This document shows positions 967-4,668 of a stretch of DNA of 38,786 bases, piece after piece. The translations under genes and the position numbers were made by a program. Below the pieces are notes generated by a model. The model ran no database searches and was not told where the DNA came from. It worked only from the letters and a program-made list of their open reading frames with translations. Origin of the DNA: Candidatus Poriferisocius aerobius (GTDB taxonomy: Bacteria; Actinomycetota; Acidimicrobiia; Acidimicrobiales; Bin134); the NCBI GenBank assembly GCA_028278955.1, contig JAPYOC010000078.1, forward strand, positions 1 through 38,786. The letters run 5' to 3'. The stretch's first letter is position 1; each line of letters opens with the position of its first letter.

Positions 967-1467
967 ATGGCCGGGATGAAGCCGGGGTCGAGCCGCGAGC
1001 TGGGGCGCACCAAGACGGTGGCCGCCAATCGCCGCGCCCGGCGAGACTTCGAGATCATCGACGAGTTCGAGGCCGGCCTGGTGCTGGAGGGCTCGGAGGT
1101 GAAGTCGCTGCGGGAGTCCAAGGTGGCGCTCGCCGAGTCGTACGCCCGCATGGCCGACGGCGAGCTGTGGCTCCAGTCTCTGCACATAGCCCCCTACTCC
1201 CACACCGGCGGCGCCGCCGGCCACGACCCCGACCGGCCCAAGAAACTGCTGTTGCACCGCGGCGAGCTGAACCGCATCAAGGCCCGCCTCGAGCAAGACC
1301 GCCTGACCGTGGTGCCCTTGTCGCTGTACTTCAAACAGGGCCGGGCCAAGGTGCTGATCGGCCTGGCCCGAGGCCGCCGCAAAGCCGACAAGCGCCAGGC
1401 CATCGCCGAAGAAGACGCCCGCCGCGAAGCCCGCCAAGAGATGGGCCGATCCGCCGACCACAGATGA
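967..1467 (+). CDS. smpB: SsrA-binding protein SmpB
   Basis: SmpB binds tmRNA and brings it to stalled ribosomes for trans-translation. The 166-residue product has the family core: an OB-fold with FEIIDEFEAGLVLEGSEVKSLR near residues 30-50, then LALAESYAR-type and LHIAPYSH segments. The basic tail (LARGRRKADKRQ) inserts into the ribosomal mRNA channel. I chose the ATG at 967 because the reading frame upstream of it overlaps era and has no SmpB similarity; ATG at 976 is an alternative. The partner RNA gene ssrA lies 1 kb downstream on the same strand. The last 50 bases of the gene and the DNA just after it reappear, diverged, at 2232-2333, so the 3' end belongs to a direct repeat. Confidence 0.95.
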   Translation: MAGMKPGSSRELGRTKTVAANRRARRDFEIIDEFEAGLVLEGSEVKSLRESKVALAESYARMADGELWLQSLHIAPYSHTGGAAGHDPDRPKKLLLHRGELNRIKARLEQDRLTVVPLSLYFKQGRAKVLIGLARGRRKADKRQAIAEEDARREARQEMGRSADHR

Positions 1468-1519
1468 CGGGGCTGCCAGCGTCAAGCGGCACCCCTGCGA
1501 TGCCTGATCGTTCGAGCCG
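1417..1519 (+). repeat. Imperfect direct repeat, copy 1 (smpB 3' end)
   Basis: This 103-base segment covers the last codons and stop of smpB plus about 50 bases beyond. It aligns with 2232-2333 at an offset of 814-815 bases. By eye, the first 52 bases differ at about 5 positions; the second half is weaker but still alignable, ending in a shared TTCGA core. The two copies enclose the toxin-antitoxin-like pair exactly. Confidence 0.75.
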
Positions 1520-1566
1520 GCGCGAAACCCAGAGTGAATAAGCGCGTGGGATCGATGCCCGCCCTG

Positions 1567-1884
1567 CTATCTGGGTGCTTCGCCTACGTAGTGGACCAGC
1601 GTGCCGGATTCGGATTCGCTCCACAGGATGATCCATTCCACGCCCGACCCGTAGACGGGTGTCCCCCATATAGGCGGAGTTTGGTAGCGGAGCCGCCAAA
1701 CCGATGCGTCACCCGGGTCGATTTCGAGCACATCGAGCATGTCATTCACCTGGTCATAAAGTCGGCGGCGAGCGGAGTCGGCCTCGAGAGCGGAGAGCTG
1801 CCTGTCGGCGTCAGGAAAAAACAGCAGTTCAGCCACCCGTGAGACAGTAGCCCTCAAGACTGCCGCATCGGGGCGATCGGGCAC
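1567..1884 (-). CDS. Putative RelE/ParE-superfamily toxin-like protein
   Basis: A 105-residue protein starting at GTG 1884. An N-terminal helical half (ALEADSARRRLYDQVNDMLD) is followed by a beta-rich half with DPGDASVWRLRYQTP, VEWIILWSE and GTLVHYVG. The order of helix-helix, dP..a..rlR, then strands ending in W and a vhyVg-type strand resembles RelE/ParE-fold toxins, which act as ribosome-dependent mRNA nucleases or gyrase poisons. No catalytic residue set can be assigned by eye, so the mechanism is open. The gene is divergent from the antitoxin-like gene at 2007, with a repeat-rich 122-bp spacer between them, and the pair sits inside a direct repeat between smpB and ssrA. Alternative: a conserved non-toxin protein of the same fold. 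Confidence 0.6.
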   Translation of the reverse strand: MPDRPDAAVLRATVSRVAELLFFPDADRQLSALEADSARRRLYDQVNDMLDVLEIDPGDASVWRLRYQTPPIWGTPVYGSGVEWIILWSESESGTLVHYVGEAPR

Positions 1885-1887
1885 CGT

Positions 1888-1972
1888 GTTTACTGCCCCA
1901 ATGTGGATGCGCTATCTTGTGAGCAGTCAACATCTCGCGAGCAGTAAACGCAGGCTCGCCGCAGGTTGACTG
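1888..1972. promoter_or_regulatory. Four-copy CAGTMAAC operator-like array in divergent TA promoter
   Basis: The spacer between the divergent genes holds the octamer CAGTAAAC or CAGTCAAC four times. It is inverted at 1888-1895 (GTTTACTG), direct at 1924-1931 (CAGTCAAC), direct at 1942-1949 (CAGTAAAC) and inverted at 1965-1972 (GTTGACTG). Copies 1 and 3 are perfect inverted partners, as are copies 2 and 4. The pattern suits autoregulation by the antitoxin or TA complex; binding itself is inference. Confidence 0.5.
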
Positions 1973-2006
1973 GCCCGGGGCCAACAACATCAGGAAGAGA
2001 ACCCAA

Positions 2007-2255
2007 ATGCCACAGCTCGTTGAACTCGATGCTCGCCGCAGGGTAGCCCTTGGGCGTCTGGGCAACCCCGAGCACACCCGCTATCTGGTAACGGAACATC
2101 CCGATGGGTCCCTAGTGCTGACACCCGCGGTGGTCATGACCGCCCATGAGGCGGCGCTACTGCGCACCCCCGATCTCGTGGCCCAGATCGAAGGGGAAAT
2201 CGCCAACCCGTCAAAGGCCGCACCATCATCAGCCCGCCGCGAGGCCCGCCAATAG
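2007..2255 (+). CDS. Putative antitoxin (AbrB/SpoVT-like, small DNA-binding type)
   Basis: An 82-residue protein with ATG at 2007. The first 40 residues read as a short beta-rich swapped-hairpin-like domain: LVELDARRRVALGRLG, then HTRYLVTEHPDGSLVLTPA. That layout resembles AbrB-type antitoxins, in which a bait strand with ld.rrRv.LG is followed by a second strand set. A helical C-terminus (MTAHEAALLRTPDLVAQIEGEI) would neutralise a partner. The natural partner is the divergent RelE/ParE-like gene at 1567-1884. The C-terminal residues ARREARQ are encoded by the second copy of the direct repeat and match the ARREARQ near the SmpB C-terminus, so the gene end was apparently built from duplicated smpB sequence. 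Confidence 0.6.
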   Translation: MPQLVELDARRRVALGRLGNPEHTRYLVTEHPDGSLVLTPAVVMTAHEAALLRTPDLVAQIEGEIANPSKAAPSSARREARQ

Positions 2256-2333
2256 ATGAGCCGACCCGCCGACAACAGATGACACCGCGGTCTGCATCAA
2301 GCAGTATCCCCACGATGCCAAGCGTTTCGACCG
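2232..2333 (+). repeat. Imperfect direct repeat, copy 2 (antitoxin 3' end)
   Basis: Diverged copy of 1417-1519. It supplies the last codons and stop of the antitoxin-like gene and about 75 bases of the leader region before ssrA. The remaining DNA to 2431 is T-rich then G-rich; a TATCAT box at 2397-2402 is a weak candidate -10 element for ssrA. Confidence 0.75.
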
Positions 2334-2431
2334 TTCTTTTTGAACAAGGCAATTCTAAAGCGTCCGAATTCGGGGGGTGATGTCGGGCTGGGGGGGTATC
2401 ATGGCACCGCACCTTGACAACCAGTGCACAC

Positions 2432-2816
2432 GGGGCTGATCGGTTTCGACGTTGGGACCGGGGGCTGCGCTGTGCGACCCGAGTTGCTCAGACTCGCAAA
2501 ACGGGGCAACCAACTAAACGGCGAAGACCGTCAACTTCTCGCAGCCTGATCAATCTGGCTAAGAGAAGCACCGCGACCGGCAACGGCACGCGGGGCCAGT
2601 CCACCGCAGCCCGGCAACAGAAGCGGCGGAGACAGTAGGGACAGACCACTGGCGGCGGGAAAGACCGCTGACCCCGGGGAACAGACCCGGTGGCGGGCCC
2701 CGAGCGGGGGCCGCCCGACCCGGCGGCGCGGCTGCCATCGACGCCGCACACCGGGAATGGTCGTATCACAGTCAGAGCCCGCCCAGCGGACGGGGGTTCG
2801 ATTCCCCCCAGCTCCA
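2432..2816 (+). ncRNA. ssrA: Transfer-messenger RNA (tmRNA)
   Basis: tmRNA rescues stalled ribosomes by acting first as alanyl-tRNA and then as an mRNA for a degradation tag. The 5' end GGGGCUG (2432-2438) pairs with CAGCUCC (2809-2815) as a seven-pair acceptor stem with one G-U. It is followed by the conserved GGUUUCGAC block. The T arm is a GGGGG/CCCCC stem (2792-2796 with 2804-2808) around the loop UUCGAUU. The discriminator is A2816; CCA is not encoded. The tag frame lies at 2496-2549. The 385-base length fits one-piece bacterial tmRNA. Its protein partner smpB is upstream on the same strand. The ends are inferred from base pairing. Confidence 0.95.
2496..2549 (+). other. tmRNA proteolysis-tag reading frame
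   Basis: The frame from the resume codon GCA at 2496 reads AKRGNQLNGEDRQLLAA and stops at TGA 2547-2549. It ends in the LAA tail recognised by ClpXP-type proteases, and its Ala start fits family practice. The tag is 17 residues long. The exact resume codon is inferred from the frame. Confidence 0.8.
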
Positions 2817-2888
2817 CTTGCCTAGTGGTGGGCCTCGCAGAAATAATCGCGCGTGTCATGCTCGCCAACGCCAACGAGATCTGCTTGT

Positions 2889-3521
2889 CTAGCCAAAGAC
2901 TTCCCGCAGCCATACCAAAAACGCCTGCGCGGTTGGAGCGCCATCGTCAAAAAGGCCCATCCTGACAGAAAGACCCATCGGCAAACCGCTGTTTTTGCCA
3001 GCCAGCCACGCGTGAACTTCGGCCTTCGACCGCTTCGGTTGCCGAGGAACCAGTTGTTCGAAGGCGTCATAAATGTAAGTTCGGGCCAGCGGCCAGATGG
3101 GGTCGTCAGGCGGAACGAGCCCGCTGAGGAAGTCTTCAAGTTCGCCGTCACTTGAATTGTCGGGCATAAGCCAGACACCGACTTTCGGAAGTCCACTGCG
3201 GGCCAACTCCGGCTTCACTACAGTGCCATCGGCTGTGGGATGCGGTGGAAGTCGGATTCCCACGGAAATGAACTGGTTTCTGATTTCTTGCCAGCGTGCT
3301 TCCAACTTGTCGTTGGCGTCCACGACGACGCCAAGAGATATTCGGCCCGAAACGAGCGCTTCGTTCCGAATGCTCTGAATGACTTCTTGGATACCGCCCT
3401 TCGCATTCACACTAAAGTCAACTGCATTTCCGGCACGCTGATAGAGGTGGCAGATGACATGTTCGTCGTCAGCGTCTTCGACAAGCAGCAGCTTTGCATC
3501 GTCTGGTTTGGGTAAGGGCAC
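2889..3521 (-). CDS. DUF3226-type Toprim-like protein, putative defence effector
   Basis: A 210-residue protein starting at GTG 3521, with the AAGGA ribosome site overlapping the stop of the ATPase gene (7-bp gap), so the two are surely cotranscribed. The N-terminus has LLLVEDADDEH (Glu15), a strand and acidic cluster typical of Toprim-like folds. A second acidic motif, VVVDANDK, contains Asp68 and Asp71. A third segment, GVWLMPDNSSDGELEDFL (residues 115-132), is the hallmark of DUF3226 proteins. By analogy with OLD and PARIS Toprim partners it may be a metal-dependent nuclease released or activated by the ATPase; that activity is inference. The base composition is visibly more AT-rich than the flanking core genes, suggesting transfer. 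Confidence 0.7.
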   Translation of the reverse strand: MPLPKPDDAKLLLVEDADDEHVICHLYQRAGNAVDFSVNAKGGIQEVIQSIRNEALVSGRISLGVVVDANDKLEARWQEIRNQFISVGIRLPPHPTADGTVVKPELARSGLPKVGVWLMPDNSSDGELEDFLSGLVPPDDPIWPLARTYIYDAFEQLVPRQPKRSKAEVHAWLAGKNSGLPMGLSVRMGLFDDGAPTAQAFLVWLREVFG

Positions 3522-3528
3522 TCAATCC

Positions 3529-4668
3529 TTACCTAACTTCGATGCCCTGGGTGGCAGCTATGTTGAGATCAGCCTCGGAATATTCAACGGAGCGAAGTGA
3601 GCCGTTTTCGCCATCAGGCTCCAGACGCACCACAACACCTTCTGAACCCTCGTCCTCACATGCGGCCTGAGCGAAGCCAGCGACGCAGTCCCAGCTGTGC
3701 GTCGTAGCTAGGATTTGGACATCGTGCTCTCGTGCTACGCGCAGCACCATAGCCCAGTAGTCGTGCAAAAGCTTGTAATGAATGCCGTTCTCAGCCTCGT
3801 CAATGAGGAGAAACCCTCCCTTTGCATTGACCAAACCCAGCGCTATTCCCAGCATGCGAACAGCACCGTCTCCTAAACTGTGAAGCGGAACGCGAGCACC
3901 CCGTGCCGGCTTGACCATCATCCGTCTGCCCACAGCATACCTCGACCGCTCTATCGTTGCGACGCCATCGATTTCTATTCGGCACGCGAGCTGTAGTGCA
4001 TCTACTACAAGTTCTTCGCTCGGTGTGAGAGCAACTTCATCCCAGTGTTCGGCAAGTTGACGATTCCCTGCAACATCAGGCCTCAACAAGACACAAGGCA
4101 CATTGTCTGGCCAACCCTCTTCACCGATTCCACGAACTCTTTTCCAATTGCGCTTAGGAAGAGGGTTAGGTCTTGCGAAGTCTTCTAACAGGACTGGTTG
4201 GTACTCAGTAGAGTTTCGGAATGAAATTCGTAAAATCGGACCCCCCAGCGCTGACCGTTGCCGCTCGAGCTGCTCTAGCCACTCGGGAGGAAGATCTACT
4301 GCCGTCACCGCCTCGACCGTCAACGGCGAATGATCTCCTACTGCCCCGATCGAGAACTGGTCGTGCTGGGCAGGCTTGCGACCATAGAACAATGCATCGA
4401 ATGCGAGGCGTTCCATACGATTGTCATCGTCGTCCTGTGAGGTTTCAATCTCGTGATGGCCTATCAGAACATTACGAAATGAGACGGAGTCACAGTGGCG
4501 GGCCAACAACTGGATCGCATCGAGCACTGTCGTCTTGCCAACGCCGTTCCGACCTGTGAGCAACGTCACGCGGCCTAGCCGTTCGATGTCCAAATGATTG
4601 ACACCGCGGAAGCCGCGAATCGCTAGCGACGGCATATGCAGGCCGTTTGTCCTCATGTGCTCAGACAT
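3529..4668 (-). CDS. OLD/RecF-like AAA ATPase (AAA_15/AAA_21 type), putative defence sensor
   Basis: A 379-residue ABC-class ATPase of the OLD/SMC-related kind. The N-terminal strand SLAIRGFRGVNHLDIERLG leads into Walker A GRNGVGKTT (residues 39-47). An insert of about 200 residues follows, and then Walker B FLLIDEAENGIH (about 287-298) and the switch-His region ILATTHSWDC. There is no fused Toprim domain; instead a separate Toprim-like DUF3226 gene starts 7 bp after the stop, giving a split OLD-like layout. Known two-gene relatives include PARIS (AriA ATPase with a DUF4435 partner), where the ATPase senses a phage trigger. The gene sits just downstream of ssrA and beside a nuclease-like gene and a decayed Fic gene. 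The start could also be an internal ATG 4 or 11 codons downstream. Confidence 0.8.
   Translation of the reverse strand: MSEHMRTNGLHMPSLAIRGFRGVNHLDIERLGRVTLLTGRNGVGKTTVLDAIQLLARHCDSVSFRNVLIGHHEIETSQDDDDNRMERLAFDALFYGRKPAQHDQFSIGAVGDHSPLTVEAVTAVDLPPEWLEQLERQRSALGGPILRISFRNSTEYQPVLLEDFARPNPLPKRNWKRVRGIGEEGWPDNVPCVLLRPDVAGNRQLAEHWDEVALTPSEELVVDALQLACRIEIDGVATIERSRYAVGRRMMVKPARGARVPLHSLGDGAVRMLGIALGLVNAKGGFLLIDEAENGIHYKLLHDYWAMVLRVAREHDVQILATTHSWDCVAGFAQAACEDEGSEGVVVRLEPDGENGSLRSVEYSEADLNIAATQGIEVR

What the first reader, a model, noticed from the sequence alone, without database searches (positions are those of the whole stretch)
1417..2333. Toxin-antitoxin pair inserted between smpB and ssrA, flanked by a duplication of the smpB 3' end
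About 100 bases covering the smpB tail recur after the antitoxin gene (offset 814-815). The antitoxin C-terminus ARREARQ matches that of SmpB because it is encoded by the repeat. A module that inserted at the smpB end and carried or created a copy of the target would leave this footprint.
Basis: partly seen in the sequence, partly recalled or inferred. Interest (0 to 1): 0.6.

Follow-up and report, generated by a model that had tools for sequence, protein, structure and literature searches.

The report
Toxin-antitoxin insertion duplicating smpB's end
A small toxin-antitoxin gene pair has landed between two genes of the ribosome-rescue system and left a copy of the first gene's end on each side of itself; a related pair in another bacterium did the same at a different gene, a footprint that may show how such pairs jump without a transposase of their own.

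Summary
Window 1417-1504 (end of smpB plus 37 nt) recurs at 2232-2319 (71/88 identical, offset 815), far above chance. Between the copies lie two divergent genes: a RelE/ParE-fold toxin (1567-1836, -) and its antitoxin (2007-2255, +). The pair is conserved across Acidimicrobiia and other Actinomycetota: 17 of 18 toxin loci and 20 of 27 antitoxin loci hold the partner. No Pfam or NCBIfam model fits the window's two proteins. Antitoxin homology to relatives stops at ...SARR, inside the octamer GCCCGCCG that opens the second copy, so its last residues (EARQ) are smpB sequence. The nearest congener and 11 others have a 61-106 nt smpB-ssrA gap with one smpB end and no pair. An independent second case decides 'carried' versus 'created': in another family (G055/L148) a related pair sits at the end of a LeuA-like gene, bordered by 18- and 32-nt copies of that gene's end, with an empty site in congener G137. 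The duplicated sequence is the target's own. Best mechanism: microhomology-mediated template-switch insertion. Rivals: a decayed integrative element (a related pair does sit in a pSAM2-like remnant at a tRNA-Phe gene), or IS3 involvement (an IS3 terminal-repeat remnant lies at 1514-1541).

The parts
967..1467 (+). smpB; its last 51 nt (1417-1467) are the coding part of repeat copy R1
   Evidence: Pfam SmpB E 2.1e-52
1417..1504 (+). repeat copy R1: smpB 3' end (ARREARQEMGRSADHR*) plus 37 nt downstream; weak extension to about 1519
1514..1541 (+). solitary terminal-inverted-repeat remnant of an IS3-type element (28 nt, 3 mismatches to the consensus; IS interior would lie to the left, outer end at 1541)
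   Evidence: transposase of the full element has rve and HTH_21 domains
1567..1836 (-). toxin, 89 aa, predicted RelE/ParE fold
   Evidence: start set by homology to G015
2007..2255 (+). antitoxin, 82 aa; residues from about 79 to the stop are encoded by repeat R2
   Evidence: homology to G015/G007 ends at SARR
2232..2239 (+). octamer GCCCGCCG shared by the antitoxin 3' end and the smpB tail: right junction of the insert
   Evidence: G007 has GCCCGTCG here, G015 GCTCGTCG
2232..2319 (+). repeat copy R2: duplicated smpB 3' end, non-functional as smpB (TAG after ARREARQ)
2365..2431 (+). native ssrA leader/promoter region, shared with empty-site relative G001 (GGGGGGTGATGTCGGGCTGGGGGGGTATCAT...)
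2432..2817 (+). ssrA (tmRNA), intact, tag GEDRQLLAA
   Evidence: ARAGORN; Rfam RF00023, 56.5 bits

Best explanation
A divergent type II toxin-antitoxin pair (RelE/ParE-fold toxin; MazE/AbrB-like antitoxin, inferred) entered the smpB-ssrA interval of this lineage at the 3' end of smpB. Insertion duplicated about 90-100 bp of the target: the left copy (R1) still ends smpB, the right copy (R2) was fused to the antitoxin gene within a 5-8 nt microhomology and replaced its variable last codons. Most likely DNA synthesis left smpB just past its end, copied the pair from another molecule, and returned by pairing GCCCGCCG with its match about 90-100 nt upstream, so that stretch was copied twice (microhomology-mediated template switching). 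Shown: the repeat, the pair, the junction, single-copy sites in relatives, and a second case with target-specific duplication. Inferred: toxicity, replicative mechanism, donor.
For: Repeat far above chance. Single-copy interval without the pair in G001 and short gaps in 11 more congeners. The homologous pair in G015, and an antitoxin alone in G007, sit beside a GNAT gene; no smpB-type repeat flanks the G015 pair. Antitoxin homology ends inside the octamer that starts R2. The antitoxin tail is variable in the family and predicted disordered (pLDDT 44-62 at the end), so swapping it is plausible. Independent second case: L148/L174 (G055), a pair between a CoA-transferase III gene and a LeuA-like gene, bordered by GGGTTATTCGTCGGCTAT on both sides and a 32-nt tandem copy of the LeuA-like gene's end; congener G137 (L175) has the same neighbours, one copy, no pair. 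There the toxin stop codon lies in the repeat, with about 6 nt (GGCTAT) shared by toxin end and target. All three copies carry G055's own variants, so the duplicate was made from the host target. The pair is conserved as a unit.
Against: The event is old (R1/R2 19% diverged; third codon positions of smpB differ 17% between window and G001), so the left junction is blurred and an IS3 end lies in it. Only 2 of about 30 family loci show a duplicated gene end next to the pair. One microhomology per case could be chance in GC-rich DNA. No donor with flanking context is known. In Dactylosporangium a pair of this family sits in a tRNA-Phe element remnant, which shows that integrase-borne transfer also occurs.
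Confidence: 0.55

Rival explanations
1. Decayed integrative element: a tyrosine-recombinase element used the 3' end of smpB as attB; R1 and R2 are attL/attR core copies, and the element has shrunk to the toxin-antitoxin pair.
For: Gene 3' ends are classic att sites and the upstream copy keeps smpB intact. A pair of this family in Dactylosporangium roseum (L161) lies between an intact tRNA-Phe gene and a partial copy (113-115 nt repeat), with a fragment carrying RepSA and Phage_integrase domains. The smpB-ssrA interval holds different cargo in other congeners.
Against: No integrase is left between the repeats. The antitoxin's own end is fused to the repeat within 5-8 nt, which needs an extra deletion. 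The smpB, LeuA-like and tRNA-Phe targets share no sequence, so each needs its own integrase. Other inserts in this interval show no convincing smpB-end copy (one 28-nt, 82% match in G021, E 0.018).
Confidence: 0.25
2. IS-assisted capture: an IS3-family element next to the pair moved it, or the pair came in with an IS whose body was later deleted, leaving the 28-nt end at 1514-1541.
For: A solitary IS3 terminal-repeat remnant sits between R1 and the toxin (3 mismatches in 28, shuffled windows at best 9). Full-length relatives of about 1323 bp with a transposase occur in G021 and G019.
Against: IS3-type transposition gives short target duplications of 3-5 nt (general knowledge), not 88. No second end flanks the antitoxin side (only one match in the window). 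The G055 case was not seen to carry this terminal repeat (one search lists no match in L106). The IS could have inserted later.
Confidence: 0.12
3. A tandem duplication of the smpB end arose first by slippage, and the pair later inserted at its junction, or the repeats are unrelated to the pair.
For: Short tandem duplications do occur at such gene ends: G400 has CTCGTCGGCAAT twice at the LeuA-like gene's end without a pair, and G055 has a 32-nt tandem copy.
Against: Requires a second event to hit the repeat junction exactly, twice independently (smpB and the LeuA-like gene). No congener has a tandem smpB end without the pair.
Confidence: 0.06

Closest known systems
RelE/ParE superfamily toxins (YoeB, ParE, RelE)
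   Same: Predicted beta-alpha-alpha-beta4 fold; the top 31 Foldseek matches in the PDB are all of this superfamily, probability 0.69-1.00, TM up to 0.76; two distant family members hit Pfam ParE_toxin, best E 1.8e-4.
   Different: The window protein has no Pfam, NCBIfam or PADLOC hit; fold matches are weak by E-value (best 5e-3); the partner is not a known RelB, YefM or ParD.
MazE/PemI/AbrB-type antitoxins
   Same: Small, N-terminal LVELDxRRRVxLG motif resembling swapped-hairpin antitoxins; sub-threshold NCBIfam MazE/PemI match (E 0.07-0.09).
   Different: No meaningful Pfam hit in any of 19 members; the predicted monomer finds no PDB fold match.
ccd in the folA-apaH gap and mazEF in relA-mazG of E. 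coli (reviewed in PMC7167474)
   Same: A toxin-antitoxin pair present or absent in a conserved intergenic gap that takes different inserts in different strains.
   Different: That review states that how these systems integrate is not known and holds no mention of direct repeats; here the target is visibly duplicated.
AICE / pSAM2-type elements at tRNA genes
   Same: Duplicate a gene's 3' end on integration; one remnant carries a pair of this family (L161).
   Different: No integrase, no tRNA and no larger element in the window.

Membership tests
Type II toxin-antitoxin system | two small adjacent genes that stay together across lineages | tested here: met
   Partner adjacent in 17 of 18 toxin loci and 20 of 27 antitoxin loci; antitoxin without toxin in G007 (toxin deleted)
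Type II toxin-antitoxin system | toxin arrests growth and antitoxin protein neutralises it | not testable with these tools
   needs co-expression
RelE/ParE superfamily | RelE/ParE fold | tested here: met
   AlphaFold2 pLDDT 91.6, pTM 0.82; Foldseek probability 1.00 to YoeB, RelE, ParE; E-values only 5e-3 or worse
RelE/ParE superfamily | recognised by a family model | tested here: inconclusive
   Window protein: none; two distant members hit ParE_toxin
MazE/AbrB antitoxin | profile or fold match | tested here: inconclusive
   Sub-threshold NCBIfam match only; fold search empty
Integrative element inserted at smpB | integrase gene between the repeats | tested here: not met
   Only the toxin and antitoxin genes fit between 1505 and 2231
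Integrative element inserted at smpB | direct repeat of the target gene's 3' end on both sides | tested here: met
IS3-family composite or IS-borne insertion | two terminal inverted repeats flanking the insert | tested here: not met
   One end only, 1514-1541

The most novel reading that the evidence does not exclude
Small toxin-antitoxin pairs of this family spread without any recombinase, by microhomology-mediated template-switch insertion into gene 3' ends. This duplicates the target's end and lets the target supply the last codons or stop codon of the toxin or antitoxin; the addiction effect then keeps the rare insertions.
Probability: 0.3. Interest if true: 0.7.

Novelty: new variant of a known kind. 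Interest (0 to 1): 0.45.

Why it matters
A 2020 review says the mechanisms by which toxin-antitoxin systems move and integrate 'remain unelucidated to this day' (PMC7167474). Here two independent insertions of one family, each compared with a pair-free site in a relative, show the same kind of scar: the target gene's end duplicated on both sides, with a short shared sequence at one junction. That makes the question testable by a systematic search for such scars. The family itself lacks library models. The case also shows an antitoxin whose C-terminus was taken from an unrelated gene.

Tried and rejected
ssrA 3' end as attachment site: the last 24 nt of ssrA occur only once in the window. Duplicated smpB ends around the other inserts of the interval (G003, G004, G007, G012, G014, G021): none convincing. 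Left/right flank comparison around about 30 family loci: no repeat above shuffles except the window, L106/L148 (one locus), L161 and L166. Pfam, NCBIfam and PADLOC for the window's two proteins: nothing above cut-offs. PDB profile searches: only weak or composition-driven hits. Antitoxin fold search: nothing. Assembly artefact: rejected, because the copies differ at 17 of 88 positions, lie inside a 38.8-kb contig, and the pair is conserved elsewhere. The age of the insertion relative to the split from G001 could not be settled: G001 shares R1-like bases before the ATG and R2-like bases after it, so its empty site may be ancestral or a loss by recombination between the copies.

Full report
What is there. 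smpB (967-1467, +) is followed by a toxin-like gene on the minus strand (1567-1836), an antitoxin-like gene (2007-2255, +) and ssrA (2432-2817). The end of smpB with 37 nt beyond its stop, 1417-1504, recurs at 2232-2319 with 71 of 88 positions identical; with one gap the similarity can be followed to about 1519/2333. The alignment score of 92 compares with at most 34 in 2000 shuffles of the same two stretches; the non-coding part alone is reached in 8 of 5000 shuffles. The repeat is therefore real, and it is not just a protein motif.

Insertion. The window lies in a metagenome-assembled genome (225 contigs, 93% complete) whose named relatives are Acidimicrobiia. In the nearest congener, G001, smpB and ssrA are 102 nt apart, with a single smpB end and no extra genes; 11 further congeners have gaps of 61-106 nt. 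The ssrA leader from about 2365 on is shared with G001. Six other congeners carry something else in the interval: antisense genes resembling a hydroxyisobutyrate dehydrogenase and a dioxygenase (G003, G007, G021; G012 in a shortened form; named from their sequence by eye, not by a profile search), another gene in G004, and in G014 about 490 nt with a PIN-like remnant (E 0.01). The spot is permissive, but only the window's genome has this pair there.

The pair. Homologues of both proteins occur together in G015 beside a GNAT gene; G007 has the antitoxin alone at the same place, the toxin being deleted. Across the order, 17 of 18 toxin loci have the antitoxin next to them. In a second collection, 20 of 27 antitoxin loci have the toxin, in divergent or tandem order, and none of the 27 lies by smpB or ssrA. 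The toxin is predicted with high confidence as a RelE/ParE fold (pLDDT 91.6; Foldseek probability 1.00 to YoeB, ParE and RelE), and two distant members hit Pfam ParE_toxin. The antitoxin looks MazE/AbrB-like, but only below thresholds. Toxicity is not shown.

The junctions. Similarity between the window's antitoxin and those of G015 and G007 ends at ...PSSARR, inside GCCCGCCG (2232-2239), the first eight bases of R2. Relatives continue with PTSV(E/Q)A; the window continues with EARQ and a stop that is a GAG-to-TAG change in the smpB tail. The family's C-terminal tails are variable, and this tail is predicted disordered. On the left, between R1 and the toxin stop, lies a 28-nt remnant of an IS3-type terminal repeat (1514-1541), unique in the window; the full-length elements in G021 and G019 are about 1323 bp with rve/HTH_21 transposases. 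Whether that IS took part or came later cannot be told.

A second, younger case. In G055 (L148/L106/L174, contig JAPPMP010000021.1) a related pair lies between a CoA-transferase III gene and a LeuA-like synthase gene. Exactly at the toxin end and 9 nt past the antitoxin there is the 18-mer GGGTTATTCGTCGGCTAT, which is the 3' end of the LeuA-like gene; on the right, 32 nt of that gene end stand twice in tandem. Congener G137 has the same two neighbours with one copy and no pair. The copies carry G055's own base changes, so they were made from the local target. The toxin's stop codon lies inside the left copy, where toxin end and target share about 6 nt. Here and at smpB the duplicated sequence differs because the target differs, which argues that the footprint is created at the target and not carried by the pair. 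Other family loci show no such scar, as expected if most insertions are old, but also compatible with other routes.

Mechanism. Duplication of roughly 18-90 bp of target, an insert with no recombinase, and a short shared sequence at one junction is what template switching with microhomology would leave. The main rival is a decayed integrative element: in Dactylosporangium roseum (L161) a pair of this family sits between a tRNA-Phe gene and its partial copy, with a fragment of RepSA and integrase domains. That route needs a separate integrase for each target and an extra deletion to bring the antitoxin end onto the repeat. My estimate: insertion with target duplication about 0.85-0.9; template switching as its cause about 0.5; att remnant 0.25; IS-assisted 0.12.

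Age. R1 and R2 differ at 19% of positions; third codon positions of smpB differ at 17% between the window and G001. The event is thus roughly as old as the split from G001, whose empty site may be ancestral or a secondary loss by recombination between the copies.

Limits. MAG data; two scars only; the G055 case was found while following the first, not in a blind survey; the family's biochemical activity is untested. The statements that IS3 elements make 3-5 nt target duplications and that integrases favour gene 3' ends rest on general knowledge, not on tests here.

Noticed in passing
window 2889-3521 (-) and 3529-4668 (-): Directly after ssrA lies a two-gene cassette matching PADLOC PDC-M38B (DUF3226) and PDC-M38A (AAA ATPase, related to AbiLi/AriA), a candidate anti-phage system. 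No duplicate of the ssrA end was found.
   Followed up: partly
L161 1713-3207 (Dactylosporangium roseum NZ_CP073721.1): A member of the same toxin-antitoxin family in a pSAM2-like element remnant between tRNA-Phe and a partial tRNA-Phe copy.
   Followed up: partly
L166 1134-1184/3083-3135 and 2303-2370/3192-3259: Two direct-repeat pairs around a VapBC-like pair (CopG-like and PIN-like ORFs, named by eye) and a pair of the present family in a Micromonosporaceae MAG.
   Followed up: no
L178 (G400), 3' end of the LeuA-like gene: A 12-nt tandem duplication (CTCGTCGGCAAT twice) at the gene end where G055 carries the pair, without any insertion.
   Followed up: no
L074 (G014), between smpB and ssrA: About 490 nt with a PIN-like toxin remnant (Pfam PIN E 0.01, below cut-off) and a second ORF fragment similar to one beside the lone antitoxin of G007.
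   Followed up: partly
G018, many contig ends; G021:C75:100821-102143; G019:C22:25501-26823: An IS3-type element of about 1323 bp with terminal repeat GAGCCTGCGCGAAACCCAGGGTGAATCA is multi-copy in the genus and also leaves solitary ends.
   Followed up: partly
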